Notes under the pieces: model-generated | Seen by the model: only the letters and a program-made list of their open reading frames with translations | The model's database searches: none | Told to the model about the DNA's origin: nothing | Translations under genes and position numbers: made by a program | Shown here: in pieces, positions 27,374-46,174 of the stretch | How positions within the stretch are numbered: the stretch's first letter is position 1 | How the letters are laid out: each line of letters starts with the position of its first letter | Source of the DNA: Akkermansia sp. | GTDB taxonomy: Bacteria > Verrucomicrobiota > Verrucomicrobiia > Verrucomicrobiales > Akkermansiaceae | Reading direction: 5' to 3' | Length of the DNA stretch: 47,715 bases | NCBI GenBank assembly: GCA_017521405.1 | Contig: JAFXCP010000029.1 | Location: forward strand, 1-47,715

Positions 27374-27393
27374 GGTGCTTGTGTATGTGTGAG

Positions 27394-27403
27394 TTCGCGC
27401 GAA
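27394..27403. promoter_or_regulatory. TTCGCGCGAA palindrome at the acnA start site
   Basis: A perfect 10-bp palindrome touching the acnA -10 and covering the predicted transcription start, a position suited to repression. The 8-bp core TCGCGCGA is also in the A2M promoter (40275-40282). Confidence 0.4.
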
Positions 27404-27430
27404 GTATACACCTTTTTTGCAGGAATGCAA
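27403..27430 (-). promoter_or_regulatory. acnA promoter
   Basis: Minus strand: TTGCAT (27430-27425), 16-base spacer, TATACT (27408-27403), about 30 bases before the ATG. Confidence 0.78.
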
Positions 27431-27482
27431 GCTAAAAAGGCCGTGCGGCCACAGTGCCGGAGCGCAGGAGACCATGGGGCAT

Positions 27483-27555: not shown

Positions 27556-30270
27556 TTAGAAGCTGTACCGCATACCGATGTTGGCGTTGAATTCGCGGCT
27601 GCCGCCCCGGAATTCAAAATTGGCACCGCCAAACATGGACCAATGCCGGCTCATGGGGATATCCAATCCCATGCCTACCAGCCCACCGCAGCGGTCCGGC
27701 TCGGCATAATCCAGATGGAAGCGGTTGCCGCCGCCGAGGAAACGAGCGTTAACGGTACTCCCTTGGTCCCCTGCATCCAGCGTGACGAGTGCCTCCAGCA
27801 TGACGGTGGCCGGGGCTTCGTTCGTGAAAGCGGTGAACTGGTGTGTAAGCCGCGCACCCAGGCCAAAGAGTACGCCCCAGGCATCCTGGCTACCCACGTT
27901 CAATCCGGCGGAGCCAAGGCCGCTCTCGGAGTAAGAATCCACCCATCCCGCCATGGAATCCACGGTGAAGAGGGGAGCGAGTGTGGTACGCTCCGCGATG
28001 CGGAAATCATAGGACAGCTCGTAGAAGGCATTAAAGGTAATGGCATCCGGGCTGCTCTTAGCCGTGCCGCTAAAGGGGCGGTCGCCACCGATGCTTACAC
28101 TGCGTTTGTGGTCCATATCGTGCAGACCGATGCCAATACCGGCACGGGTGTACCAGCCGCGATAGCGGTACCCGGCATAGAGGTCGATGTAGTAGTTATC
28201 CGTGCGGTCGCGGAATTGGGACACATCGGTAATGCGGGAGCGCTCGTACCCGGCGGCCAGCCCCAGCAGCAAATTCTCGTTCATGCTGTACTCCGCACCA
28301 AGCATGCCACCCCAGGAATCGCGGTCGAATCCGGGAGCCGAGGATGCGGAACCACGGCGGGAGAAGGAGGTGAAGGGCGAGAGCCATACGGACATGCCGG
28401 GCTTCCATGCCCCGGTGTAGCACATCTGCCCGCTCTTGGGGTCCAGCATGCTTTGGCGGGTGGCATTGTTTCGTCCCATCATGTTCCGCAGGTTACGGTT
28501 ATGCACCAAGCCACCATCCAGCAGGGAGGACATTACAGTGGTGAGTCCCATGCCCCCCAGAGAATTGAGTGCGGAGAGGGTCTCCCCGCTGCTGGTGGTG
28601 TAGCGCAGGGAATCCAACACGGTGGCCAAGCTGCCGGTGGCGGTGCCTGCATCCTCCGCAGAGGCCAGTGCACGAGCCACGGCGTTCTGGTTTGCATTGC
28701 CGGAAACGCTGCGGTAGTTGCGGCTGAGAGTGAGGACCACGCCCTCCTCCGTATTCTCCGTGCGGGCGTTGAGACCATCCAAGTTGCTATCAATCTCCAT
28801 GGAGAAAGCCCCCGTCACATCATCCGCCTGTACGAGAAGAATATCTCCACGGTTGAGGAGTTCCGTCTCGTCCCCGCTTACGTTGAGCTGCAGGCTGCTG
28901 CCTTGGAGATTAGCCGCTTGGGTCACAACGAGAGTATCCTGCTGGCCGCCCGCATTCACATCCATCACCACGGTGGAGCCGGCATTCAACTCCAGCGTAC
29001 CGAGGGTGAGGGTGGTGTAATCCGTTGCGGTACTACTGCCCACTACCAGTGTGGTGCCCGAGGAGCCATTGGCCACGGCCACGCTGCCAATGCTGCCATT
29101 GCCGCTTACCGTGGTGCCGGTGGACATGGTGACGGCGGAGCCCAATGCAGTATTCACGGCAAGGGAGCCTTCCTGCAAATCAATGGCCGCCATATAGGCC
29201 GATTTATCTGCCCCTTCCACCACGAGGGAAGAGAGGCCATCCTTCACCAATGTGGAGGTGGCATCAGCCGTCATCTCACCGCTCAGGCTCACGGTGGATT
29301 CGTTATTGGTGGTAATGGTATCGAAGTTGAAATTATTGCCGCTTACCAGCACATTCCCCTCCTCCGCCAGCAGGGTGGAGATGTTTTTCGCTACGCTGGT
29401 ATCCTCGTGGGAGAGAACGAGAGTGCCTTCCCCCATCTTGGCCAGTACGCCCTCGGAGTTCACCTCGCCGCTCAGCGTCTGCTCCCCGGCAGCCACCTCT
29501 ACTGTAAGCTGGCCTGCGGGTGCGGTGGCGGTGGCGGCGGAGCTAATGTTCTTCTGCTCGTTGCTATTGAGTTGCAGCACATGGGAACCGGGGGCTACGA
29601 CTAAGGTACCATCCGTACCCAGCTGGTTATCCCCGCCGGTGAGACCATATTGCCCGGCGGTAGGGGTGGTGGCAATGGTAATGTTCTCTGCGGTGCCTTC
29701 CTGCAAGAGGATATCGCCTGTGAGGTCCATACCCGTGCCGGAGCCCACCATCAGCGTGGCCTCGCTGCCCTGCACATTCACATTCCCGGCACCACTCACG
29801 GCAGAAAGGCGCACCACCTGCTCCTGCCCGATGTTCAGCACGGAATCATTCGTCGTGTCATCCACCTGGAGCTGCATCCATGGACCGGCATCCGTTTCCG
29901 CCACTTCCGCCGGGGCGGTGCCTTGCAGGTTCACGGTATTTGCCACTGCGCCGGTTTGGAGGCTTACTACGGCCGGAGTGCCCGTGGTGCCGGAAAGGGC
30001 AGTATCCGCCGTGTTGAGGGTGGAGGCGGTGAGGGTGACATTTCCTTCCACGGCTCCGCCTTGGAGAATGTTCACTTCGTTATTGCCTGCGGTGGTCACG
30101 TTGCCCGTGAGCTTGGCGGATACGTTCAGCACGTCATCGGTCGACAGTGTCTGGTCACCTGTCTGGTCGGTGGTAATATCGATAACAGCGGCGGATGCAG
30201 GCACGGCTGCGGCCACCATCATCACGGCAAGGGCGGCACGGCGCAGCCCCAAGGGTAGGTGTAATTTCAT
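27556..30270 (-). CDS. Autotransporter (type Va) surface protein
   Basis: A 904-residue autotransporter. Residues 1-27 are a signal peptide ending PASA. The passenger (about 28-610) is rich in Thr/Ser/Gly/Asn/Val with short repeated strands such as [18 protein letters not shown] and [10 protein letters not shown], as expected for a beta-helix of the PATR type. The C-terminal barrel (about 620-904) has alternating aromatic strands ([33 protein letters not shown]) and ends MRYSF with terminal Phe, the BAM signal. It probably displays an adhesin at the surface. No protease triad was recognised. The start at 30270 gives the signal peptide. Its promoter is not clear; TTGACC at 30376-30371 has only a weak -10. 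Confidence 0.85.
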
Positions 30271-33456: not shown

Positions 33457-33496
33457 GGAAACCCCGCAGCAAGGTACAACTTGCTGCGGGGTTTCC
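33457..33496 (-). terminator. Porin/transport operon terminator
   Basis: A perfect 17-bp stem (arms at 33457-33473 and 33480-33496) about 25 bases after the porin stop. The stem ends in TTTCC on the minus strand, a weak T-tract. The A/T-rich stretch 33323-33456 holds no gene. Confidence 0.75.
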
Positions 33497-33519: not shown

Positions 33520-34791
33520 TTAGAAATTACAACGAATGGCGCTGGTAAATTCCCAACCGCAATAGCTATTTGCCCCATCCTTGCGGGAGGTGAGGTACTC
33601 AGCCCCAAGCATGAGCTTGGCTGCGCTCTTATCGCGAGCAGAGGCGTAGAAATCCGCGCCGAAATAGAAGCTATGAATGCTATCCACCCATGTGGGGGAA
33701 GGTGTCTGCGTGCATACGTAGCGGTCCGCACCGAGTTTGCAGGAACCATCCCCCGTTACGCCGGCATAGCGGAACACAAGGTCCACATGCGGTGTGAGCG
33801 CGTATACAGGCAGGAACATGATGCCCACATTGTGGGAACCCTCCGCATTTCTCATATCGAAGTTGGCCACCAAGTTCGTGGTGAGAGTCCACTTCCCCTG
33901 CTTGATTTCATAGCCGAGGGAGATAGCATCCTGCACGTTGATACCGTAACAGTTAGCACCATCCGTAGCATGGTTACGGCTGTATGTGTTATCGAAATCG
34001 TGCGTATACTGGGCGGAGACCATGTGGTAGCCCTCCTCGGAGATGAGGAATTTATGCTGACCACCCACAATGCCGTAGAATTTATCCTCCCAGCCGAATT
34101 CGCCTTTGAGACCGCGGCCATCGCGGTAGGCATCGCTATGGGTGTAGTTTTTGCCGGTGGGGGCGCGGTCGTTCGCCAAAAGCTGGAGGAAGAGCTTATC
34201 GTTCTTGGAGGGTTCGTACATGGCTTCCACACCCCAGTTGGAATCCAATCCGTGCTGGCCACCCACTACGGAACGATCTACACAGGGATAAACGGAGGAG
34301 GAGGCGATGTATTCCGTGGTGAAGAGGGGGGAAAGCTTGCCCACGCGGAAGCTAAGCCCCTTCACGGAGGAGATATTCTGCTTTACCCAGATATCGAAGA
34401 GGTTGGTGTAGGAATAGTTCTTCTTGTTGCGGCCATTCGGGAAGGTGTTACGCTCCGGCAGGCCACCCACACGCGCCCACACATGGAAGCGAGTACCCGT
34501 GCGGAAATCCACATTGGCACCTATCCAACTGCGGCGGAACTCTTGGTTGCGCGGGCCGGCACCGCGTCTCAAGTGGGCACCATTGCTGCCGGAAGGCTGC
34601 ACGGCGGCCACTTGGAATTGCTGGCGGATGGTGAATTGTACTTTGGATACGAGTGTCTCATCGCTCTCGTACACGATGAGGGCATCCTTAATGCTGCTCA
34701 ACCAGTCCTGCGGCTTATCCTGCACCGCAGCCCCCTGCGCGGCCAGTGCCGCAGAGGCAGCCAGCAGCGTGGAACAAATCATCTTCTTCAT
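33520..34791 (-). CDS. Outer-membrane porin (OprO/OprP-like)
   Basis: A 423-residue porin. Signal peptide ends AAQGA. The mature part is a series of amphipathic beta strands (FRRSWIGANVDFRTGTRFHVWARVGG, DIWVKQNISSVKGLSFRVGKL, KWTLTTNLVANFDM) ending in RCNF with terminal Phe. The pattern resembles phosphate-selective O/P-type porins, but selectivity cannot be read from it. It starts six bases after the receiver gene and is the last gene of the transporter-kinase-receiver-porin operon, which suggests that it is the outer-membrane gate for the substrate of the inner-membrane carrier. Confidence 0.82.
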   Translation of the reverse strand: MKKMICSTLLAASAALAAQGAAVQDKPQDWLSSIKDALIVYESDETLVSKVQFTIRQQFQVAAVQPSGSNGAHLRRGAGPRNQEFRRSWIGANVDFRTGTRFHVWARVGGLPERNTFPNGRNKKNYSYTNLFDIWVKQNISSVKGLSFRVGKLSPLFTTEYIASSSVYPCVDRSVVGGQHGLDSNWGVEAMYEPSKNDKLFLQLLANDRAPTGKNYTHSDAYRDGRGLKGEFGWEDKFYGIVGGQHKFLISEEGYHMVSAQYTHDFDNTYSRNHATDGANCYGINVQDAISLGYEIKQGKWTLTTNLVANFDMRNAEGSHNVGIMFLPVYALTPHVDLVFRYAGVTGDGSCKLGADRYVCTQTPSPTWVDSIHSFYFGADFYASARDKSAAKLMLGAEYLTSRKDGANSYCGWEFTSAIRCNF

Positions 34792-34797
34792 GGCGAA

Positions 34798-35271
34798 TCA
34801 GCGCAGTTTGCTAAAGAGCGTAGCGTTGTCCAGAATCGGCATGTACTCCGTGTGGTCCAAGCCTTTATCCAAGATGTAAAGGGTAAGCAGACGCTTTACT
34901 ATGGACAGCAGTTTCTCGGGTTGCCAGGGTTTCTCTACATAGTTATCCACCTGGCCTTCGTTGATGGCATTGATGGTATCGGCGTGCGTGGCTTGCCCGG
35001 TGAGCAGTACTTTGCGGGTGCCGGCAAAGCGTTTATCGGAAGCCACTTTGCCCAGCAGCTCCGTGCCGCTTTCCCCGGGCATCACTTGGTCAGAAATCAC
35101 AACGGCCACCATGTCGCCCTCATCGTCTATCTGCTCCATGAGCTTGAGACAATCGGCCACACCGGAAGCCTCCTCCAAACGCACAAGGGGAGTGAGCGGA
35201 CGGAGGTCGCGCATGACGGAATCCAGCACTTCCTGCTGGTCATCGACACATATGATATTAATTTTCTCCAT
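34798..35271 (-). CDS. Receiver-only response regulator
   Basis: A 157-residue CheY-like protein. The receiver (residues 4-125) has the acidic pocket (VDD), the phospho-acceptor Asp61 in VVISDQVMPG, the Thr of LLTGQA and the Lys of VEKPWQP. After it comes only a short helical tail of about 30 residues (LLTLYILDKGLDHTEYM); there is no DNA-binding or enzymatic output domain. The start at 35271 overlaps the kinase end by 14 bases. It must act by protein contact, perhaps on the kinase, the carrier or a separate regulator. Confidence 0.9.
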   Translation of the reverse strand: MEKINIICVDDQQEVLDSVMRDLRPLTPLVRLEEASGVADCLKLMEQIDDEGDMVAVVISDQVMPGESGTELLGKVASDKRFAGTRKVLLTGQATHADTINAINEGQVDNYVEKPWQPEKLLSIVKRLLTLYILDKGLDHTEYMPILDNATLFSKLR

Positions 35272-36700
35272 GGATTTGAGTGGTGGGAATGTTAATAATG
35301 AAAGAGGTTTCCTCCTCGGTGCTGCGAACTTCGATGGCGGCTCTGTAGCTATCAATCACGCGGCGCACGATGGAGAGGCCCAGACCGAGCCCGAAATCCA
35401 GCCCGAGTTTTTTGGTTGTAAAGTTAGGATGGAAGATTTTGGTGATATTCTCCTCTGCAATGGCAGGGCCATTGTTGGAGATGGTAACGGTAATATAATC
35501 CGAGGGGAGGAGCCGGTGCCCCTCTGTGTGGAGAATACCCGTGCTGATGCAGATGCGGGGATTGGGTGTTTGGTCCTGCATCAGGGCATCGTAAGCATTT
35601 TTAATGATATTAGTCCACACCTGCACTAGTTCCGTGGCATCTGCCGTAATCGGAGGCAGGGGGGAGAAGGTGGTTTGCACGGTGAGGTGCTTGAGCTGGT
35701 TGTGCAGCAGGTTAAGGGCATCCTTAATGGTCTGCTCCACATCCACGCCCGGCTCGCGGGTGGATTTGCCGCCTCCCAGCATCTTCACGGCTCGTACAAT
35801 GCCTGTGGCCAGTTTGGAGGCAATTTTCATATCGCGCAAATCGTGTCCCAACTCCCAAAAACGATAATTGCGGCGTAAATTGCGAATAAAGCGGGAGGTT
35901 TGCTTGCGCCCCAGCTCTGTATCCGGGTACATATGAGCCATCACCTTAGCAGCTTCCTGCGGGAGTTCCAACTCGCGCTCGTAGTAGCGAGCAGCGGAGC
36001 GTAAATCGCTCGCGGAGGCATAGGAATTATCTTCCACGCCGGCGCGGAAGAGTTCCGCATTGCACTTATCTTCCGCTTCCAAGTACTCCTCCAGACTTTG
36101 CGCCACAAACTCCGTACGGCGGGAAAGCACCCCCACTGCATTGTTTAACTCATGGGCAATGCCTGCGGAAAGCTGGGCGAGCGTAGCGGACATTTCAGAG
36201 CGCTGCACAAGGCGCAAGGCTTCTTCTTTTTCGGCAGCTTTAGTAAAGATACGGCTATTACGGGCAGCCAATTCGTGAATGATGACGGGCAGGAACTGGC
36301 GCTCAAAGGGGCCGTAGAAAGGGGCATCCACCGCCATGGTAGTATCGTCGATGTAGCACACCTCGGAATCCTCCAGTGCGACGATGTTGTAGCTGCTGCG
36401 GTACATGCGGGAGAAGAAGGACTGCACGCACACATAGGAGCCTGCCTCTGCCCGGAAGGCTTCGTAGCCGCGGGAACTGGATTCTGCCGGCAAATCGAGC
36501 CCGGCCACGTTTTCAGCTTGGCGAAAGGCGGCAAAGAGCCCCTTCTTCACCAAAAACATACGGTAGCACTCCTCCCCCTGGTGTACAAGCACCTTCCCCT
36601 GCGGCACCTCGAGGGTGCGCGCAGGGTCGCTGAAATACACTTGGTTAATGCGCCGGAGCGGACGTGTAATCTCATCCGGCAAGGGCATTTGGACCGACAT
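35258..36700 (-). CDS. Histidine kinase with CRP-like sensor domain
   Basis: A 480-residue soluble kinase with no membrane helix. Residues about 25-150 look like a cyclic-nucleotide-binding (CRP-type) sensor: VPQGKVLVHQGEECYRMFLVKKGLFAAFR, then SYNIVALEDSEVCYID. A helix links to the phospho-acceptor His183 in LSAGIAHELNNAVGVL, followed by a long helical insert (about 200-300). The ATPase part has the N box (WTNIIKNAYDAL), ISNNGPAI and the DFGLGLGLSIVRRVID G-box. Whether the sensor binds a nucleotide is not clear. It follows the DASS carrier by 24 bases and overlaps the receiver gene. Confidence 0.88.
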   Translation of the reverse strand: MSVQMPLPDEITRPLRRINQVYFSDPARTLEVPQGKVLVHQGEECYRMFLVKKGLFAAFRQAENVAGLDLPAESSSRGYEAFRAEAGSYVCVQSFFSRMYRSSYNIVALEDSEVCYIDDTTMAVDAPFYGPFERQFLPVIIHELAARNSRIFTKAAEKEEALRLVQRSEMSATLAQLSAGIAHELNNAVGVLSRRTEFVAQSLEEYLEAEDKCNAELFRAGVEDNSYASASDLRSAARYYERELELPQEAAKVMAHMYPDTELGRKQTSRFIRNLRRNYRFWELGHDLRDMKIASKLATGIVRAVKMLGGGKSTREPGVDVEQTIKDALNLLHNQLKHLTVQTTFSPLPPITADATELVQVWTNIIKNAYDALMQDQTPNPRICISTGILHTEGHRLLPSDYITVTISNNGPAIAEENITKIFHPNFTTKKLGLDFGLGLGLSIVRRVIDSYRAAIEVRSTEEETSFIINIPTTQIHGEN

Positions 36701-36724
36701 GCAGGGGGAGGGCGGGAATAGGTA

Positions 36725-38431
36725 TTATCCGAAGAAGCCAACGGCACCCAGCCCCACCATCATGAGGATGGTGATAGCCAGGCCCAAAAGGCAGAGAATG
36801 GTGCCGGAAATAGCCATACCTTTCTGCTCCACGTGGCCGGTGGCATATGCCATAGCATTGGGCGGAGTGGAAATAGGCAGAGCCATTCCCAAAGAGGACG
36901 CGAAGGCTACCGTTACCAGCAGTGCCACAGCCCCGGGGGTATCCATGGAACCGGCAGCCATCATAGCACCGGCCACACCACCCAGAATGGGTACCAACAG
37001 AGCAGCCGTGGCCGTGTGGCTCATAAAGGTGGCCATGAAGAGGCAGATGCAGCTGGCACCCACCAGCAGCATGATGGAATTCCACGTATCAAAGGGAATG
37101 GCGTTAATCATATCCTTAGCAAGGTTCGTCTCGCTGAGGGCCACACCCAGAGCAAAGCCGCCGGCTACCAGCCAAAGCACATCCCAGCTCATAGCCTTGA
37201 GGTCCTTCTTCATGATTACCCCGGTGATGGAGAACACCGCAATGGGGATGATGGCCACGGAGTTGGAATCCAAGCCATGGTATTCCTTGGGGATAATCCA
37301 CATCAGGATGGTGACGATGAAGGTGGCATAGACGATGATGGCTTTGGGGGTGGTCAGGAACTTACCCTTCAGCTCTTTGGAGAGGTCGAGGCTCTTCTGG
37401 GAGATGGGGAACATCTTGAGCAGCACCAGCCAGCCCACCAGCAGCACGATGAGTACGAAGGGGATACCGAACATCATCCACTTACCGAAGGTGACATCCA
37501 GACCAAGGTCCTGCATGTATTTGAGGGCAATGGCGTTAGGCGGCGTACCGATGGGCGTACCGATGCCACCCACGTTCGCACCAATCGGGATGCAGAGGGC
37601 AAAAGCGGCGCGCCCGCGGTCCTCCGGCTTAAAGAGAGCCAGCACCGGCGTGAGCAGGGCAAGCATCATAGCGGCCGTGGCCGTATTGCTCATGAACATG
37701 GAGAAAACAGCCGTCACGCTCATCAAGCCCAGCAGCACGTACTTGGGATTAGTGCCGAAGGGCTTGAGCAGCACGCGCGCCAAGTTGATATCCAAGCGGT
37801 ACTTGGTAGCGGCATCGGCCAGGAAGAAACCACCGAGGAAGAGAATGATGATGGGATCCGCAAAGGTGGCAAAGATACTCTTCTGCTTGGAAACGCTCAC
37901 CAGATTCAACTCGTTAATGCGTTGACTCAGCGTACCATCGTAAAGTTTAGCGGCAGCGGCGGCCAGCTCTGCCTTAGCGGCGGGTTCCGTCACCTTACCG
38001 CTCACCACGGGGGCGAGGATGGTGTTATTGATGGTGGAGCGCACATAAGCCGAGGAAAGAGAGGTTTGCTTTTTCATATCGGCCAGCACGGCATCCTGAG
38101 TAGCCTGCACGGTTTCGGGCTTAGCGGCGGGGCCATAGGCATCGGCCACAATGGCTTTGACGGCAGCACTGTCGAAACGCTCCACTTGCAGGAAATTCAA
38201 GGATTGGTTGGACATTCCCAACAGCGTAAGAGTGATAACCAACACGGAAGTGGTCCAAATGGGAATGACCTCCAAAATCCACATGAGAGCGGCAAACACA
38301 AACAGTGCAATCACTCGGCTCTGAATGGTGTTAATCGGGATTCCCCATTCTTCGAAGGGAATCAGAAGCATGCTGCCACTAAGCAACAGCACAATGATGA
38401 GTTTAATCAATGTTTTCTGAGCTTGATTCAT
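36725..38431 (-). CDS. DASS/SLC13 family Na+-coupled anion (dicarboxylate) transporter
   Basis: A 568-residue polytopic carrier. DASS motifs are visible: the first SNT signature (FMSNTATAAMM), the loop PIGTPPNAIA, a second hairpin region and LPISTPPNAMAYATGHV near the C-terminus. Family members import or exchange succinate, malate, citrate or sulfate with Na+. Two oddities: the second signature reads MSHTATAA (His472 in place of the usual Asn), and about 100 hydrophilic residues (about 82-185) are inserted before FADPIIILFLGGFFLAD. I start at 38431 (MNQAQKTLIK); an upstream in-frame ATG would add a non-hydrophobic leader. First gene of the carrier-kinase-receiver-porin set. Confidence 0.88.
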   Translation of the reverse strand: MNQAQKTLIKLIIVLLLSGSMLLIPFEEWGIPINTIQSRVIALFVFAALMWILEVIPIWTTSVLVITLTLLGMSNQSLNFLQVERFDSAAVKAIVADAYGPAAKPETVQATQDAVLADMKKQTSLSSAYVRSTINNTILAPVVSGKVTEPAAKAELAAAAAKLYDGTLSQRINELNLVSVSKQKSIFATFADPIIILFLGGFFLADAATKYRLDINLARVLLKPFGTNPKYVLLGLMSVTAVFSMFMSNTATAAMMLALLTPVLALFKPEDRGRAAFALCIPIGANVGGIGTPIGTPPNAIALKYMQDLGLDVTFGKWMMFGIPFVLIVLLVGWLVLLKMFPISQKSLDLSKELKGKFLTTPKAIIVYATFIVTILMWIIPKEYHGLDSNSVAIIPIAVFSITGVIMKKDLKAMSWDVLWLVAGGFALGVALSETNLAKDMINAIPFDTWNSIMLLVGASCICLFMATFMSHTATAALLVPILGGVAGAMMAAGSMDTPGAVALLVTVAFASSLGMALPISTPPNAMAYATGHVEQKGMAISGTILCLLGLAITILMMVGLGAVGFFG

Positions 38432-38582: not shown

Positions 38583-40187
38583 TCAAAAAAGCCCCATGAG
38601 TACCTCCACCAGAACCGTCATCAAAATCATTGCAGCAGGATATGCCGTAGCATAGGCGATTACGGGCTCTTGGCGCTCAGTCTTTGCAGTAATGGCACCC
38701 AGAGCGGGGGTGGAAGTAACACTGCCGCAAATGGCACCCAGAGCCTCCGCCAGCGGAAGGCGCATGAGTTTACGAGTCACATAATACCCAAGCGCCAGCG
38801 GCAGTGTGCTGATGAGTGCGCCGATAAAGAGCATAACCAAGCCTTGCTCCATCACAGTTTGCACTAATTTTTCCCCACCGGTCACACCGGCTCCGGCCAG
38901 GAAAAGCATGAGGGCAAAATCCATCAACAGCACGCGGGATGGGCGGGGGATATACCCGGCAATAGGCCCCAGCTTTCCGAAATGCCCCAGGATGAGTGCC
39001 ACCAGAAGCGGACCGCCGGCCATACCAAGGGAAAAGCCTTTTCCTTCACCAAGGCTTATTTCCACATTACCCAGCAGAATACCCAGTGCCACGCCACCCG
39101 TAAGGGAGAGGATATCCGTCACGTTCAATGCGGAGGAGCGGTGGCCGCACGTGGCGGAAAAATCCCTCACGGCGGTGGCAGAGCCCACCACGCGGACAAC
39201 ATCGTTACGCACAAGTTCCGTATCCGCCGTAGGCACAAAGGTATGCCCCAAGCGGGTGACTCGGGTAATGGATACACCATGGTTTTCCAACGTGCGGAGC
39301 CGGCGCAGCGGGCATCCGCAAAGGGAAGCGTTCAGCACAATCAGCTCTGCGCTTTCATCGCCATAGGAGCGGAGGAGGTGGTGGCTGTGGCTCACATGCC
39401 CCAGCAAGCCTACATCGTGCTCCACAGAGGCGCGCTCTCCCACCATGAGAACTTCCTGCTCCAGAGAGAACACATCCTCCGCAGAGAGCGGCATGAGCAC
39501 CTCCTCCTTCACCACGCGGGGGATGAGGCATTTCAAAGCACCGGATTCCACATATGTGGTGATATTCCAGCCCAGCACCTCCGGATTCGTTACCCGCACC
39601 ACACGTTTGATAATATCCGTGGGGGCTTTTTCATCCGCTTTTCCCTCCGGGGTCTCATTCAAATCCTTTTTCAGCAATCGGGGGAGCAGCTGCACGAACA
39701 GTACCACGCTTATTACCCCGAAGGGATAAGCCACACCATAACCGATGTTGACAAGGGCCGAGTCCCCGCCATTTTCCACCACTGATTCCACGGCTGCAGC
39801 CAATGCCGGGGTACTTGTATTAGCCCCGGAGAAAAGCCCGGCAGCCATTTCCGGGCCAATACCGAAGAGCTTGCAGCTTCCCCACGCCACCAGCATGGCA
39901 CTGGAGGCCATAAGGAGGGAAAGGAGCATGAATATGCTACCCTTCTTCCCCAGGGAGGAGAAAAATCTGTTTCCCACACCCAAACCCACGCAGTAGACGA
40001 AGAGAGCCGTGCCGATACCCATGATTCCCTCCGGTACCTTCAAGCCGAAGTGCCCTGCCGCCAGTGCGATGAATAGTACGCCGGAATTACCAAGGGATAC
40101 GCCTTTAACGGATATATGCCCAAGAGCCATTCCCAAACAAAGCACGGCGAATAGAACAAATGTCGGGTTCGCAAAAACAACGTCCAT
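38583..40187 (-). CDS. AspT/YidE-YbjL (AAE) family transporter
   Basis: A 534-residue carrier with the AAE layout: five helices, two central cytosolic RCK_C (TrkA-C) domains (about residues 190-365, including VLNASLCGCPLRRLRTLENHGVSITRVTR and VRVVGSATAVRDF), then a second membrane half ending GAICGSVTSTPALGAITAK and AYPAAMILMTVLVEVLMG. Known members exchange aspartate for alanine (AspT) or export succinate (SucE); the substrate here is unknown. I start at 40187 (MDVVFANPTF) because the promoter places transcription downstream of two earlier in-frame ATGs. The DASS gene follows 151 bases later on the same strand. Confidence 0.9.
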   Translation of the reverse strand: MDVVFANPTFVLFAVLCLGMALGHISVKGVSLGNSGVLFIALAAGHFGLKVPEGIMGIGTALFVYCVGLGVGNRFFSSLGKKGSIFMLLSLLMASSAMLVAWGSCKLFGIGPEMAAGLFSGANTSTPALAAAVESVVENGGDSALVNIGYGVAYPFGVISVVLFVQLLPRLLKKDLNETPEGKADEKAPTDIIKRVVRVTNPEVLGWNITTYVESGALKCLIPRVVKEEVLMPLSAEDVFSLEQEVLMVGERASVEHDVGLLGHVSHSHHLLRSYGDESAELIVLNASLCGCPLRRLRTLENHGVSITRVTRLGHTFVPTADTELVRNDVVRVVGSATAVRDFSATCGHRSSALNVTDILSLTGGVALGILLGNVEISLGEGKGFSLGMAGGPLLVALILGHFGKLGPIAGYIPRPSRVLLMDFALMLFLAGAGVTGGEKLVQTVMEQGLVMLFIGALISTLPLALGYYVTRKLMRLPLAEALGAICGSVTSTPALGAITAKTERQEPVIAYATAYPAAMILMTVLVEVLMGLF

Positions 40188-40220
40188 AAACAAGAAGGGG
40201 AGGTAAAAAAAGAACGGCTG

Positions 40221-40249
40221 GTTATACATGGGAATACCCTTCTTGTCAA
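40221..40249 (-). promoter_or_regulatory. AAE transporter promoter
   Basis: Minus strand: perfect TTGACA (40249-40244), 17-base spacer, TATAAC (40226-40221). Transcription would start near 40214, which excludes the in-frame ATG at 40229. Confidence 0.85.
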
Positions 40250-40268
40250 GCACTGCCTCACTTTTGCG

Positions 40269-40297
40269 TTGCGCTCGCGCGAAAGGTGGGTTATAAT
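40269..40297 (+). promoter_or_regulatory. A2M gene promoter
   Basis: TTGCGC (40269-40274), 17-base spacer, perfect TATAAT (40292-40297), 22 bases before the ATG. Divergent from the AAE promoter. Confidence 0.72.
40275..40282. promoter_or_regulatory. TCGCGCGA palindrome in the A2M promoter spacer
   Basis: An 8-bp palindrome between the -35 and -10 of the A2M promoter. It also lies about 64 bases upstream of the divergent AAE start. The same core is at the acnA start site. Confidence 0.35.
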
Positions 40298-40318
40298 GCA
40301 TGCTCCACTACTCAGCAC

Positions 40319-43300
40319 ATGCGATACATTCTATCCTCCATTCTGCTTATTCTTGCGCTTGTACTGCCGAGCCCGGCCGATTCTCTCGTGAGCGTCGAAC
40401 GTCTGGGCATCATCAACATCACCTTCAGCGAACCCGTGGTAAGTGCCACCACTGTGGCGAACCAGTTTAACGAACAGCTCAGCCCCAAGGAGCGTGGGCT
40501 GGAGCTATTCACCATCACCGGGGATAAGGATTACCCCCCTGACGCCCGATGGGTAGCGCAGGATTGCCTCCGCATTGTTCCCGCCACCGGCAGCACCGTA
40601 CAAGTGGAGTATGCGTTAAATTTCAAACCCGATACCCGTTATCTGAGCGGACGCCCCTTACAGAACTACGCCTACACCTTCCGCACGCGGCCGGTGCCCT
40701 TGGTGAGTGAGGAAGCTCCGGGCATACCGGGGGGTGCTATGCTTGTTTGCGCCCGTCCGCGCATTTCGCGGGAAGCACTCAATCTTTCCCCGGCATCGCC
40801 CATACGATACACCTTCACCCGCATGGTACCCGATGGCACGGGAGAGCGCGTACCCGGGAGAGAAAGCGTGGAAGGCATTGCGGAGCCGGCTTTGCTGCGG
40901 CACGGATGCAGTTACAGCGTGCTGAGTGCCCTGCGCCGCAGTGGTGCCCGCTGGGAGGAGCTTACGCCGGATACCCCCATTAGCGGCTATGTTCTCGTGC
41001 GCCCGGCACGCCGCCTACCGGAAGGCAGCGAGTGGCGCTTAACCGCCACCGTACGCAACCTAAGCGGATTCTTGGATAGCAAACTCGGGGAGATTACCAT
41101 TACACACCGCCTGCAACTGCGCGCAGAACAAGTGTTCCACCCTGAAAGGGCAACTTCTCACGGCAATAGCCCGGAAACTCGTGTACGTGTCAGCTTCTCC
41201 GCCGAGATGGATAAAACTACTCTGCCGGAACTTTTTCGGCATATGGAGGTGTACTGCAACGGAATCAAGGCCACCCCGGTGGAAGGCAATCCCCTCTGCG
41301 TGGAGGCTCAAGTGGAGGGGAAGCCTGTGCGGATTCACTACGCAGGGCCTTCGGAAGCCACAAGCATGGAGGTGAGCGGTACGCACCTGCATGGGGAAGA
41401 GCGCATCCTCTACACGCACCCGCAAGCACGCCCGGGCATGGAGTTAACAGTGGAAACCGCCCGCCCCTTCCTGCTGGAGCTGCGCTTTGCCAAGAACGTC
41501 AAATCCCTGCAAGGAATGGAATTGCAAAGCCCTACAGCCTGCCGACTTTCCATCACCCCGGCACAGCCCTGCATGCCGGAACCGGATACCGCCGGAGTAA
41601 CCACTCTACCACTGCATGGCAAACATAAGCTGCAAATCCCCTACCTGAATGGCGCAGAACTGGGAATTTCCCTGCATCGCTGGTCGCAAGAGCAAGCCAC
41701 CACCACCATGGGAAAAATGCTGGACATTATGCGTAGGCAGAAGGAATCCCCCCATAGCAAGCTAATGGAAAGCCTGTACCTCAGTGCCCTCATCCAAGCC
41801 CGGCAGGAGCATAAACTTCCCACGGAGGACCTCCCCACACCGGAGGAGCAGGAGGCCCACCGCACAGCACTCCAAGAGCTGCACACCTTGCAGCAGCAAG
41901 TACTGCAAGGTTCCGTTTCCACCCCCATGTTCCGCATGGCCGCTCCCTCGGGGGATAACCGTTTAGCAGGGCACAGCCGCGTAGTAGTTGAGCTGCCCCA
42001 ACTGCTGCAAGGAGAAGCTCTCCGCCCCGGTCTGTATGTGTTGCGCCTACGTTTCACACCTAATGCCGCCGTTCGCGCGGCGGCGGAGGCCTTGGGCATT
42101 CACCAAGAACTGCTGCAACGAGAAGAACTGGCCGTACTTCAGGTAACGGATTTACAACTCCGCCTCAGTACGGATGATTCCCTCGCACTCCTGACACGCT
42201 TCTCCACCGGCAAACCGGAAGCGGAGGGGCAGCTGCAAGCCCTCGGTCGCCAAGGTCTTTTCGGCTCAGCCTTCCCCACACCACACGGCACAGCCCAACT
42301 CCGCCAAGTGGGAGGAGAAATCCTCATGGCCACCCATGGGGAGGACTACTGCTTTGCCCCACGCTATGGTAATAATTGGCTACCGGATTGGGCGGATGAC
42401 GATACGGCGGAAGACCCGGATGCCGTGGAGACAGAGCCGGAGGTGGAGTTGAAAGCCATGTTCTGGACGGATCGCCGGCTCTACCGCCCGGGAGAAACCG
42501 TGCATGTGCGCGGCTTTATGCGCGCCGTGGATAAAATGAACCGCTTTAACCACTCCAAGCACAAGAATTTAGACCTCGTACTCATATCCCCACTGGGACG
42601 GGAGCTGGAACGCCGCAATTTCGATGTGGATGCGTATGGTGCCTTTGAGCAAAGCTTCCGGCTTCCCGCCGGGCAGGACAATGTGGCCGGTGCTTACCGT
42701 CTGCGCCTGCTCACCCCCCTTCCCCGGCAACTGGCAACCCAAACCATACGCTGCGAGGTATTCCGCCGGGATACTTTCGATGTGCAACTCCGCGCCATGG
42801 GAAGCCCCATTGCCCCGGCTCAATTAGAGCTTCGGCTGGAAGCAGCAGATTACTCCGGCACCCCTGTGGCAAATGGGCGAGTGCAGTTGGAAATAAACGC
42901 TCCTATTCCCTTGGGAGAAGAAGGCGAAGCCCTGCCGGATAAGAGCCGGGAAGAACCCAACTACACCCTGCGCCGCCAAGCCACCCTAAACGCCGATGGC
43001 ACACTCCAATTCACCCTTCCCCTCCCTCCCATACAGAAAGAAACCACCCTACACATCTCCGGCAATGTGGCCAATGCCCGGGAGGAATACCGCCACTTCC
43101 GCTTAAACCACACCCTCTGCCCGGCAGGTTTGCGGCTCAAACTCACACCCGATGCCCGGCTGCACCTGCTGGATGCCCGGCAAGATACCCCCTTGGCAGA
43201 GGAGCAAGAGGTGGAGGTACACCTACACGGCACCCGTGAAGAAACCCGCCAACTACCTAACGGTTTCTCTCTGGTAACCACTTCCCCCTACCACCTCTGG

Positions 43301-46174
43301 GGAGAAAGTGTGCGCGTGCCGGCGCACTCTGCCACCGGCATTAAGCTACCCCTGCACAGCATCATCCGCCGCTTGCTGGACATCGGCATCCCCTTGCAGG
43401 ATAAATACACCGTAACCCTCTCCGGCAAGGACAGTGCCGGGCGCAGCTTTAATGAGCAGCGTTCGTTCTACTCCCATGGGCAAAATATGCCGCCGCTCTT
43501 CCGCTTAAGCCAGGAACACCCCGGGGCCACCCCCATGCTGCATTCCGCCATGGAGGGTACAGCCATTGCCATTGTGCGCTGTGGTGTTCGCACCCGCTGC
43601 ATCAGCATTCCCGTGCAGAAGGGGGAGCACCCCCTCTCCTTCACCCCGGAGGCAGAAGAAACCGGGGAGCTGCAACTCCAGCTCTTGCTTCCCTATGCCG
43701 ATGAGCATGGGCAGCATACCCTTCTTGCCTCCACACAAGCCGCCCTTTCTTACCCGAATCCGGCTCGCGATTTGGAGATTACCCTCAATGTTCCGGCACA
43801 AGCACGCCCGGGCAGCACCCAGGATTTTTCCGGGCAGGTACGCCGCCCGGACGGGACCCCCGCGCAAGCCGTCGTTACCCTTTATGCAGTGGATGCCGGA
43901 ATTCTCAACCTAGCCGATTACCACCTGCCAAACATTGCCGCCAGTCTTTCCCGCACTCAGGCACAGCATCTGCATTTTCCACCCATGCTGCAAAAGCATC
44001 GGGCCTTCTCCTTCACCCCCCTGCCCGGATTGTGGCGCGGAGAAAGCCGACCCACCGCCGGAGGCACATGGAAACGGGAGGATTTTGCCGGGCAACTCGG
44101 GCATACGCCCATGCCCATCCTCATGAGTGCCGCCACGGCCACCGGTATGGGAGCCGATGCGGATACCCGCTGGTTGGAGGGCATCTCCGTTCTGGACGAA
44201 GCGGATGAGGCAGCATTGGAGCAGCCCTTGCTCCGCAAACATACGAACGCCACCACAAGCACGGCAGAGCCCCTCCTCCTGCGCCACAATTTCGCCCCCT
44301 TAGCCCTGTGGCAGGGAGCCCTTCCCACTAATACCGAAGGGCGTTTCAGCACACGCACCACCCTGCCGCACACCCTCACCACCTACCGCATTTTCGCCGT
44401 GGCAGCCGATGCGGCAGGGACCGGATTTGGCACCAAGGAGGCGGAGCTAAACGTGCAGCAACCCCTCATGCTCAATGCCACGGCTCCGCTCTTCATGAGT
44501 ACGGGCGACCGGCTGCAAATCCCCCTCACCCTCACCAATAACAGCTCCGCCCAAGGCACATGGAAATTGGCTGGCTCCGGCACATCCACCCCGCAAGAAA
44601 TCACCCTTGCCCCCCATGCAGAGCACACCTTCCACTTCGAGGCTGCCCCGGATACCGAAGGTGATTACCACATGCAATGGATGGCCACCGGCGAAGGCGG
44701 ACAGGATGCCACAGCCATCACCATCCCGGTGCGGCGCCCCGTCCCCTTGCTCAAAGAGGTTCACCACCTCTTGCTGGCAGAAGGAGACAAGGAGCAGAAC
44801 ACCGCCTCCCTGTTGAGTAAGGAACTGGCGAATTCCGCGCAAGGCACGCTGGAACTCCGGCTCTCTGCCAACCCGCTACTACACATGGCAGGCTGCGTGG
44901 AAATGGCTCTGCAGTGTCCCTTCGGACACACTGAGCAACTGGCATCCTCCATGCTGCCCTGGCTCATGTACGACCGCTTGGCTCCCCTTTCCCCGCAAAT
45001 GGCTGCCACTCCGGCAGCACAGGTGCCGGAGCTACTCCGACAAACCATGCAGCGCCTCGCCGCACGCCGGCAGAAGGATGGTGGCCTTGCCTATTGGAGC
45101 GGCGGGCATGAATCTTGCCTTTGGGCCAGTGCCCATGCCGCCATGGTTCTCCAAATGGCACAGCAGCACGGTCACACCCTTCCGGAGGGGCTACTGGAAG
45201 GGCTACAGCGTTATCTCTCCACTGCGGAACTTAAAAATGCCTCCCCCCTCACTCGCTACCAAGTAGCAAGGTTGAAGGGCGACCGCTCCACCATGAAATC
45301 CGCCCTCGCCGAAGCCGGAAAAATTGCTCGCGAAGCACAGCAATGTCCATGGTGGTGCAGCGGCTCACTCACCGCAGATATCACCTTTCTGAGCTACCTT
45401 ATGGACTACAATGCAGGCCGCTACGAAGCCTTCCTTACGTGGATGCGTAGCCGCGCGGCCGACCCGCGGCACCAGAGTTCATGGCGCAGCGCATGGGCCA
45501 TCACCGCCCTCATGGAATATGTGGGCAACTCTGCCGGAGCGGTTGTGGAATCTGCCGTGCGCCTTCCCAATGGGCAGCAGTTGGAGCTGCAACGCGGCAT
45601 TACCACCCTGCAACTTGCCGCCACCGGCACACGCTTGGCAGACACCGCTGCAAGCATTACCCCCCTACGCGGAAACACCTATGCCATCGTACGAGCCACA
45701 GCTCTTCCCCCGCAGGAACAATACCCCGGCATTACCGAAAAAGGCTTGCAAATAACCCGCCTTTACGAGAAACAAGGGGAAGATGGCGTGTGGCGCCCCA
45801 CCTCCGAATGGAAAGTAGGGGATGTCGTACGTATCACCCTTACCTGCGCTAAGACCGCCCCGGAACTCCAACACTTTGTGCTGGAAGATTACCTGCCCGC
45901 CAGTATGGAAGCCATTAACCCTGCGCTGCCCACTCAGGCAGCAGGACTCCCCCACACAGAGTGGAGCCAAGAGCTAAACCACCGCGAGTACCTCGCGGAT
46001 CGCGTGCGCGGCTTCGGCACACGATGGGTAGGTCAAGGCACGCTGAATATGGTATACTACGCCCGTGTCAAACGAGCCGGCACAGCCACTGCCCCCCCTG
46101 CCCAGGCTCAGCTTTTTTACGAACCACAGGTATATGGGCTCTCCTCCGGAGCCACACACATCTCCCTCCCCTAG
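40319..46174 (+). CDS. Bacterial alpha-2-macroglobulin family protein, thioester Cys missing
   Basis: A 1951-residue secreted protein; signal peptide at residues 1-20 (MRYILSSILLILALVLPSPA). Bacterial alpha-2-macroglobulins trap proteases in the periplasm. Family marks run in order: an early Ig-like region, the MG2 motif FWTDRRLYRPGETVHVRGFMR near residue 715, VVTLYAVDAGILNLADYHLPN near 1185, FAPLALWQGALPTNTEGRFSTRTTLPHTLTTYR near 1325 and an alpha-helical thioester-type domain from about 1520. There the usual GCxEQ reads GHTEQ: His1537 replaces the Cys that forms the thioester. It is therefore of the thioester-less type. No penicillin-binding protein 1C gene, a common partner, is adjacent. 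Confidence 0.9.
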   Translation: MRYILSSILLILALVLPSPADSLVSVERLGIINITFSEPVVSATTVANQFNEQLSPKERGLELFTITGDKDYPPDARWVAQDCLRIVPATGSTVQVEYALNFKPDTRYLSGRPLQNYAYTFRTRPVPLVSEEAPGIPGGAMLVCARPRISREALNLSPASPIRYTFTRMVPDGTGERVPGRESVEGIAEPALLRHGCSYSVLSALRRSGARWEELTPDTPISGYVLVRPARRLPEGSEWRLTATVRNLSGFLDSKLGEITITHRLQLRAEQVFHPERATSHGNSPETRVRVSFSAEMDKTTLPELFRHMEVYCNGIKATPVEGNPLCVEAQVEGKPVRIHYAGPSEATSMEVSGTHLHGEERILYTHPQARPGMELTVETARPFLLELRFAKNVKSLQGMELQSPTACRLSITPAQPCMPEPDTAGVTTLPLHGKHKLQIPYLNGAELGISLHRWSQEQATTTMGKMLDIMRRQKESPHSKLMESLYLSALIQARQEHKLPTEDLPTPEEQEAHRTALQELHTLQQQVLQGSVSTPMFRMAAPSGDNRLAGHSRVVVELPQLLQGEALRPGLYVLRLRFTPNAAVRAAAEALGIHQELLQREELAVLQVTDLQLRLSTDDSLALLTRFSTGKPEAEGQLQALGRQGLFGSAFPTPHGTAQLRQVGGEILMATHGEDYCFAPRYGNNWLPDWADDDTAEDPDAVETEPEVELKAMFWTDRRLYRPGETVHVRGFMRAVDKMNRFNHSKHKNLDLVLISPLGRELERRNFDVDAYGAFEQSFRLPAGQDNVAGAYRLRLLTPLPRQLATQTIRCEVFRRDTFDVQLRAMGSPIAPAQLELRLEAADYSGTPVANGRVQLEINAPIPLGEEGEALPDKSREEPNYTLRRQATLNADGTLQFTLPLPPIQKETTLHISGNVANAREEYRHFRLNHTLCPAGLRLKLTPDARLHLLDARQDTPLAEEQEVEVHLHGTREETRQLPNGFSLVTTSPYHLWGESVRVPAHSATGIKLPLHSIIRRLLDIGIPLQDKYTVTLSGKDSAGRSFNEQRSFYSHGQNMPPLFRLSQEHPGATPMLHSAMEGTAIAIVRCGVRTRCISIPVQKGEHPLSFTPEAEETGELQLQLLLPYADEHGQHTLLASTQAALSYPNPARDLEITLNVPAQARPGSTQDFSGQVRRPDGTPAQAVVTLYAVDAGILNLADYHLPNIAASLSRTQAQHLHFPPMLQKHRAFSFTPLPGLWRGESRPTAGGTWKREDFAGQLGHTPMPILMSAATATGMGADADTRWLEGISVLDEADEAALEQPLLRKHTNATTSTAEPLLLRHNFAPLALWQGALPTNTEGRFSTRTTLPHTLTTYRIFAVAADAAGTGFGTKEAELNVQQPLMLNATAPLFMSTGDRLQIPLTLTNNSSAQGTWKLAGSGTSTPQEITLAPHAEHTFHFEAAPDTEGDYHMQWMATGEGGQDATAITIPVRRPVPLLKEVHHLLLAEGDKEQNTASLLSKELANSAQGTLELRLSANPLLHMAGCVEMALQCPFGHTEQLASSMLPWLMYDRLAPLSPQMAATPAAQVPELLRQTMQRLAARRQKDGGLAYWSGGHESCLWASAHAAMVLQMAQQHGHTLPEGLLEGLQRYLSTAELKNASPLTRYQVARLKGDRSTMKSALAEAGKIAREAQQCPWWCSGSLTADITFLSYLMDYNAGRYEAFLTWMRSRAADPRHQSSWRSAWAITALMEYVGNSAGAVVESAVRLPNGQQLELQRGITTLQLAATGTRLADTAASITPLRGNTYAIVRATALPPQEQYPGITEKGLQITRLYEKQGEDGVWRPTSEWKVGDVVRITLTCAKTAPELQHFVLEDYLPASMEAINPALPTQAAGLPHTEWSQELNHREYLADRVRGFGTRWVGQGTLNMVYYARVKRAGTATAPPAQAQLFYEPQVYGLSSGATHISLP

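What the first reader, a model, noticed from the sequence alone, without database searches (positions are those of the whole stretch)
33520..38431. Carrier, CRP-like kinase, receiver-only regulator and porin in one operon
Four same-strand genes are packed with gaps of 24, -14 and 6 bases: a DASS/SLC13 anion carrier, a soluble histidine kinase with a CRP-type sensor, a CheY-like protein with no output domain, and an outer-membrane porin. The layout couples inner- and outer-membrane transport to a two-component pair that cannot bind DNA itself. It may directly control carrier activity, or the kinase may sense a cytosolic metabolite or nucleotide through the CRP-like domain. I know of no described system with this order; novelty is inferred.
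Basis: partly seen in the sequence, partly recalled or inferred. Interest (0 to 1): 0.75.

Follow-up and report, generated by a model that had tools for sequence, protein, structure and literature searches.

The report
Carrier with its own phospho-switch pair
A membrane carrier for a small anion, perhaps phosphate, travels through many lineages of one bacterial phylum together with its own kinase and a bare signalling protein that has no DNA-binding part, which suggests that the cell may switch the carrier itself by phosphorylation instead of changing gene expression.

Summary
The operon is real: four minus-strand genes, gaps 24, -14 and 6 bases. It is not strain-specific. In 387 sampled genomes of the phylum, 34 of 40 members of one DASS carrier group have a module-type kinase and receiver beside them, 38 of 40 the receiver, and 0 of 60 other DASS hits either. 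The triad is patchy (34 of 387 genomes, 10 families). The core is carrier + kinase + receiver; the porin is an addition (10 of 34). I think the receiver acts directly on the carrier (inferred). Phosphate is the likeliest substrate: the carrier has the histidine that holds phosphate in yeast Pho90, the porin is distantly related to Porin_O_P and has a paralogue beside a PstS-like gene, and the 7 of 24 genus genomes without PstB all carry the module. In the window's own genome two receivers have no kinase nearby, so cross-talk is not excluded. New variant of a known kind.

The parts
36725..38431 (-). DASS/SLC13 carrier, 568 aa; SNT at 248-250, SHT at 471-473 (H472 aligns with Pho90 His779); insert at about 75-185
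35258..36700 (-). soluble histidine kinase: CRP-like domain, H183, long stretch between H183 and the HATPase domain, altered G1 box (N409, A413)
34798..35271 (-). receiver-only response regulator, 157 aa, D11/D61/T91/K114, C-terminal tail
33520..34791 (-). outer-membrane porin, distantly related to Porin_O_P (PF07396); addition found in part of the module's range
33457..33496 (-). 17-bp hairpin after the porin, likely end of the transcription unit
38583..40301 (-). AspT/YidE-like antiporter upstream (neighbour, not part of the conserved core)

Best explanation
A conserved three-gene module in which a dedicated kinase and a receiver-only protein control a DASS carrier at the protein level. Shown: one group of DASS carriers, the kinase and the receiver stay together in 34 sampled genomes from 10 families; the receiver's catalytic residues are intact; none of the three genes has a DNA-binding part. 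Inferred: the kinase senses a cytosolic signal through its CRP-like domain (probably not a canonical cyclic nucleotide) and sets the phosphorylation of D61; the receiver docks on the cytosolic face of the carrier and changes its rate, as the SPX domain does in yeast Pho87/Pho90. Inferred with moderate support: in this genus the substrate is phosphate, which enters the periplasm through the porin.
For: 387 genomes: 34 of 40 DASS of one group have module-type kinase and receiver within 3.5 kb on the same strand, 38 of 40 the receiver; 0 of 60 other DASS hits have either. Two gene orders, 24 DASS-HK-REC and 10 DASS-REC-HK. In 3 loci the carrier keeps the receiver with no kinase nearby; none keeps the kinase without the receiver. 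Tree: all 32 module or partial rows lie on one side of a 97/98 branch from 20 others. Beside four of seven kinase relatives looked at on plasmids of other phyla there is a receiver fused to a non-DNA-binding effector: FAD oxidoreductase (Deinococcus), EAL or HD (Vibrio, Salinivibrio, Burkholderia). No Hpt match in 3 of 3 genomes. In G119 each of 5 receivers has a kinase match within about 2 kb on the same strand. Precedent: loss of the SPX domain raises uptake by the DASS carriers Pho87/Pho90 (PMC7381174, passages). Phosphate: His at the second SNT motif in 18 of 32 module rows and 0 of 20 others, at the place of Pho90 His779, which stabilises phosphate (PMC13381914, passages); porin relation to PF07396 and a paralogue directly before a PstS-like gene in the window's genome; PstB over cut-off in 17 of 24 genus genomes, the other 7 all carrying the module.
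Against: No interaction, phosphotransfer or transport was tested. The window's kinase lacks the G1 aspartate and second glycine (12 of 39 rows, all of this genus). G128 keeps carrier and porin with no module kinase or receiver found, and G420 the carrier alone. In G000 two of four receivers and two kinase-sized hits lie apart, so cross-talk is possible. Three of the seven plasmid kinase loci had no receiver match nearby, and the Vibrio kinase has no cNMP match. Phosphate is uncertain: 14 of 32 rows have Asn at the key position, G132 and G128 among them; VcINDY scores almost as well as Pho90 (208 and 212 bits); an AspT-like gene lies next door; Pit is present in 24 of 24; the porin family has matches in 58 of 60 genus genomes, with paralogues in genomes without the module, so it is not dedicated to the module; the Pst comparison is post hoc and not corrected for relatedness (7 of 14 against 0 of 10, one-sided p 0.0099).
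Confidence: 0.48

Rival explanations
1. The carrier is the sensor: as with DctA/DcuS or Pst/PhoU/PhoR, the carrier's state tunes the soluble kinase, and the receiver carries the signal to some other, unlinked protein.
For: Carrier-kinase sensing units are well described (PMC6978683, passages); the same gene linkage would result.
Against: Those systems end in a DNA-binding regulator; here none is linked, and where the carrier is without a nearby kinase it is the receiver that stays with it (3 loci).
Confidence: 0.22
2. Same module, other substrate: a C4-dicarboxylate or sulfate carrier, with the porin passing the same anion (overlaps with the best explanation, differs in substrate only).
For: TIGR00785 membership; VcINDY aligns almost as well as Pho90; AspT-like antiporter adjacent; 14 of 32 rows have Asn at the key position.
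Against: His at the Pho90 phosphate position in the window; PF07396 relation of the porin and the PstS-linked paralogue.
Confidence: 0.35
3. In the window's own lineage the pair is decaying or has become phosphatase-only: the kinase binds ATP poorly and the carrier runs unregulated.
For: D409N with loss of G413 in 12 of 39 rows; G128 has carrier and porin but no module kinase or receiver.
Against: H183, N-box, F-box and G2 box are intact and the frames open; receivers of this clade are 72-82% identical to the window's.
Confidence: 0.15
4. The receiver is a shuttle or cross-talks to a DNA-binding regulator elsewhere in the genome.
For: The window's genome has three other receiver genes, two of them with no kinase match on their contig, and two kinase-sized HATPase hits with no receiver nearby.
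Against: No Hpt match in G000, G119, G128; in G119 each of 5 receivers has a kinase match within about 2 kb.
Confidence: 0.12

Closest known systems
Yeast Pho90/Pho87 (SPX-DASS phosphate carriers)
   Same: DASS fold, best-scoring solved structure for the profile; His at the phosphate-binding position; a cytosolic regulatory part restrains flux
   Different: no SPX match here; the regulator is a separate receiver with a kinase
AmtB-GlnK and SbtA-SbtB (recalled)
   Same: carrier with a small soluble protein that gates it according to cell state
   Different: PII-type ligand-binding regulators, not a phosphorylated receiver
DctA/DcuS-DcuR, DctS-DctR, PstSCAB-PhoU-PhoR-PhoB
   Same: transporters coupled to two-component systems (PMC6978683, passages)
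   Different: a DNA-binding regulator; output is transcription
cNMP-domain kinase beside REC-FAD oxidoreductase (Deinococcus aetherius plasmid, L115)
   Same: kinase with cNMP and HATPase domains, overlapping genes, receiver with a non-DNA-binding effector
   Different: receiver fused to an enzyme; no carrier in the pair
VcINDY (DASS dicarboxylate carrier)
   Same: DASS fold, almost equal score; SNT motif 1
   Different: Asn at motif 2 (alignment of a NadC-family relative shows SNT); no two-component partner known to me

Membership tests
DASS / SLC13 carriers | score over the curated DASS model | tested here: met
   TIGR00785 243.7 against 198.6 bits
DASS / SLC13 carriers | two SNT-type substrate motifs | tested here: met
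   SNT 248-250; SHT 471-473, a variant with His
DASS / SLC13 carriers | Na+-coupled transport | not testable with these tools
   needs an uptake assay
Pho90-like phosphate carrier | His at the phosphate site of the second hairpin | tested here: met
   H472 aligns with Pho90 H779 through the profile (role from PMC13381914, passages)
Pho90-like phosphate carrier | N-terminal SPX domain | tested here: not met
   no SPX among the Pfam matches
Two-component histidine kinase | H-box His and HATPase N, F, G2 motifs | tested here: met
   His in 39 of 39 rows; motifs present in the window
Two-component histidine kinase | G1 box DxGxG | tested here: not met
   N409 and A413 in the window; 12 of 39 rows changed, 27 canonical
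cNMP-binding sensor | cNMP-binding fold | tested here: met
   PF00027 29.8 bits, cut-off 27.5; 24 of 24 rows match at E 0.01
cNMP-binding sensor | phosphate-binding-cassette glutamate (position recalled) | tested here: not met
   no Glu at the aligned position in 39 of 39 rows, read by eye
Single-domain response regulator | receiver catalytic residues, no output domain | tested here: met
   D11, D61, T91, K114 in 21 of 21 rows; no other Pfam domain over cut-off
OprP/OprO porin (PF07396) | match to the family model | tested here: inconclusive
   window protein none; 7 of 10 orthologues at E up to 1, best 1.3e-08; 25% identity to a PF07396 paralogue
OprP/OprO porin (PF07396) | phosphate selectivity | not testable with these tools
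   single-sequence model failed, pLDDT 29

The most novel reading that the evidence does not exclude
A secondary carrier whose transport rate is gated directly by a phosphorylatable receiver domain: a bacterial counterpart of SPX-gated Pho90, in which the kinase reads a cytosolic signal and the receiver clamps or frees a phosphate carrier, without transcription. I know of no described case.
Probability: 0.38. Interest if true: 0.85.

Novelty: new variant of a known kind. Interest (0 to 1): 0.68.

Why it matters
Two-component systems are read almost always as gene switches. A conserved unit whose only constant linked target is a carrier would make post-translational control of nutrient uptake by receiver phosphorylation testable with three genes. 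If the substrate is phosphate, gut bacteria and yeast would have found unrelated regulators for the same job, throttling a DASS phosphate carrier. One module genome has a single contig of 2,664,102 bases, the size I recall for the type strain of Akkermansia muciniphila, so work in a cultured strain looks possible.

Tried and rejected
Structure of the porin: the single-sequence model had pLDDT 29 and was not used. The receiver model had pLDDT 65; only its extra C-terminal helix is noted. The promoter and terminator scan gave 2 promoter-like and 6 terminator-like sites against 3.8 and 4.9 in shuffles; it missed the hairpin seen by eye and folded. The genome-contig scan with one kinase returned 14 loci of other phyla, matching mostly in the ATPase part; none of the 14 had a DASS match in the stretch held. 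Plasmid search with the receiver: no match at 1e-12. Plasmid search with the carrier at 1e-40: 2 records, no kinase or receiver match in the stretches. Chromosomes of other phyla were not searched, so the spread beyond the phylum is little tested. A looser porin-DASS link in the genus (about 5 kb apart, other genes between) was judged too weak.

Counts to read with care. The searches scored only a few candidates a genome (4 kinases, 9 receivers, 3 carriers at most in large genomes) at E 1e-40, 1e-25 and 1e-50, so hits are lower bounds, and 'neither' means no module-type kinase or receiver hit, not no kinase of any sort. Among the 40 carriers, 38 score 578 bits or more; the other two (G363, G374; 423 and 393 bits) are cut by contig ends and I placed them in the group by hand because they stand in triads; without them it is 32 of 38. 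The 60 others score 426 bits or less and include 4 fragments (G474 twice, G374:C68, G430:C57) that may belong to the group. Of the 35 receivers in triads one is the receiver-like domain inside the G331 kinase. The tree used 31 of the 40, the carrier of G093, and 20 of the 60. The 39 kinase rows are not the 39 hits: they add G093 and G101 and leave out some. G093 and G101 are apparently not among the 387, as they are not listed there. 27 carrier positions passed my test for group-typical residues; the four that I name are enriched, not exclusive (up to 30% in the others). Porin after the receiver was counted with my own profile for the triads fetched and with Pfam only for chosen neighbours.

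After checking the draft I lowered the best explanation from 0.50 to 0.48 and raised the cross-talk rival from 0.08 to 0.12, because two receivers of the window's genome have no kinase nearby, which the draft had left out.

Literature: searches listed no paper that by title or abstract start describes this module; only open-licence PMC papers are held. Passages were read in PMC7381174, PMC6978683, PMC13394699 and PMC13381914; all others were seen in search listings only.
Full report
Observation. The four genes are at the stated places with the stated spacing. A 17-bp hairpin lies after the porin, and 151 bases separate the carrier from the AspT-like gene upstream. The simplest unit is carrier-kinase-receiver-porin.

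The conserved thing is smaller and older than the operon. In the family search of 145 genomes, full-length relatives of the kinase fall in the window's genus, and their surroundings show carrier, kinase and receiver together in most. Two genomes of another genus in the family have the same three genes with a longer kinase (L042, L043). In 387 genomes of the phylum, searches with kinase, receiver and carrier alignments gave 39, 42 and 100 places. I split the carriers into 40 (38 of 578 bits or more, and two cut by contig ends that stand in triads) and 60 others (426 bits or less). Of the 40, 34 have a module-type kinase and receiver within 3.5 kb on the same strand; of the 60, none has either. 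Of the six exceptions three have the receiver but no kinase nearby (G071:C3, G417:C12, G405), one a receiver cut by the contig end (G410), one carrier and porin only (G128), one the carrier alone (G420). From the other side, 34 of 39 kinases and 35 of 42 receiver hits lie in triads. The order is carrier-kinase-receiver in 24 and carrier-receiver-kinase in 10. The 34 triads are in 34 genomes of 10 families, 13 of them among the 24 genus genomes, so the distribution is wide but patchy. In a tree of 52 carriers, the 32 module or partial rows lie on one side of a 97/98 branch from the 20 others.

The porin. It follows the receiver in 10 of 34 triads: nine in the genus and one in another family (G476), where it is a clear Porin_O_P (E 3.5e-48). 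In G119 and G038 an AspT-like antiporter takes its place. The window's porin matches no Pfam model alone, but 7 of 10 orthologues match Porin_O_P. The wider porin family has matches in 58 of 60 genus genomes, also without the module, so it is not dedicated to it. A paralogue in the window's own genome, 25% identical, matches PF07396 and lies directly before a PstS-like gene (PF12849), divergent from a permease gene, PstB and PhoU. G071 has the same porin-PstS-like order, and in G128 a PF07396 porin lies about 3 kb before PstB on the same strand.

What the carrier carries. The carrier profile finds Pho90 (212 bits) and VcINDY (208 bits) as near-equal best solved structures. The second SNT motif is SHT or SHS in 18 of 32 module rows and in 0 of 20 others. 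That His aligns with Pho90 residue 779, and His779 stabilises phosphate where sulfate and many carboxylate carriers have Asn (PMC13381914, passages). PstB is over its cut-off in 17 of 24 genus genomes; the other 7 all carry the module and the SHT form; 7 of 14 genomes with a module carrier lack it against 0 of 10 without. This comparison was made after the idea arose and the genomes are related, so it is a lead only. Pit is present in 24 of 24. I put phosphate at about 0.55 for this genus.

The signal side. H183 is present in 39 of 39 aligned kinases and D11, D61, T91 and K114 in 21 of 21 receivers. The CRP-like domain has no Glu at the cassette position in 39 of 39 (position recalled), and 6 of 7 module genomes have no class III cyclase match, so the signal is probably not cAMP or cGMP. 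In 12 of 39 kinases, all of this genus and the window's included, the G1 box has N for D together with loss of the second G. The G119-type kinase, which is canonical, should therefore be tested first.

Why direct control, and what speaks against it. None of the three core genes has a DNA-binding part, and no Hpt match was found in three genomes. In G119 each of five receivers has a kinase match within about 2 kb on the same strand. In the window's own genome, however, two of four receivers (C31 and C10) have no kinase match on their contig and two kinase-sized hits have no receiver nearby, so cross-talk cannot be excluded there. G128 has three receivers and no module kinase or receiver, yet keeps carrier and porin. 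Of seven kinase relatives inspected on plasmids of other phyla, four lie beside a receiver fused to a non-DNA-binding effector; the Deinococcus one, the only one of the two kinases tested that has a cNMP match, overlaps a REC-FAD oxidoreductase gene. By that analogy the effector here is the carrier. DASS carriers can be gated from the cytosol: removal of the SPX domain gave up to eightfold more phosphate uptake (PMC7381174, passages). The step from linkage to binding is inference.

Organism. Names were withheld. G119 is one contig of 2,664,102 bases, the size I recall for A. muciniphila ATCC BAA-835; genus Akkermansia and phylum Verrucomicrobiota rest on that recall.

Verdict. Observation confirmed; interpretation partly supported. 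New variant of a known kind, interest 0.68.

Noticed in passing
window 35258-36700 (residues 406-415 of the kinase): The G1 box reads SNNGPAI where most relatives have DxGxG; 12 of 39 aligned kinases share the double change, all in this genus.
   Followed up: partly
window 36725-38431 (residues 75-185 of the carrier): Insert of about 110 residues between predicted helices, longer in G132, missing in G354 and missing or short outside the genus; side of the membrane not determined.
   Followed up: no
L163 6722-8963 (G000:C17): Porin paralogue directly before a PstS-like gene, divergent from a run with PstB and PhoU: a phosphate locus with its own porin.
   Followed up: partly
L120, L121 (G071:C3, G417:C12) and L039, L088 (G071:C28, G417:C3): Two genomes hold a second, split copy: carrier + receiver in one place and kinase + porin in another.
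   Followed up: partly
L125 (G128:C6): Carrier and porin adjacent with no module kinase or receiver found in the genome: a natural comparison.
   Followed up: partly
L115 3178-6242 (Deinococcus aetherius plasmid): cNMP-domain kinase overlapping a receiver fused to an FAD oxidoreductase.
   Followed up: partly
G000:C31:56555, C10:32293 (receivers); C36:12349, C23:19936 (HATPase hits): Unlinked receivers and kinase-sized hits in the window's genome; pairing unknown.
   Followed up: no
window 24656-27475 and 27556-30270: Two large adjacent minus-strand ORFs that look like autotransporters by eye; not tested.
   Followed up: no
window 40286-46174: ORF of 1962 aa, divergent from the AspT-like gene; not examined.
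   Followed up: no
window 38583-40301: AspT/YidE-like antiporter, upstream of the module in the window and five other genus loci (L032, L033, L035, L036, L087) and downstream of the receiver in G119 and G038.
   Followed up: partly
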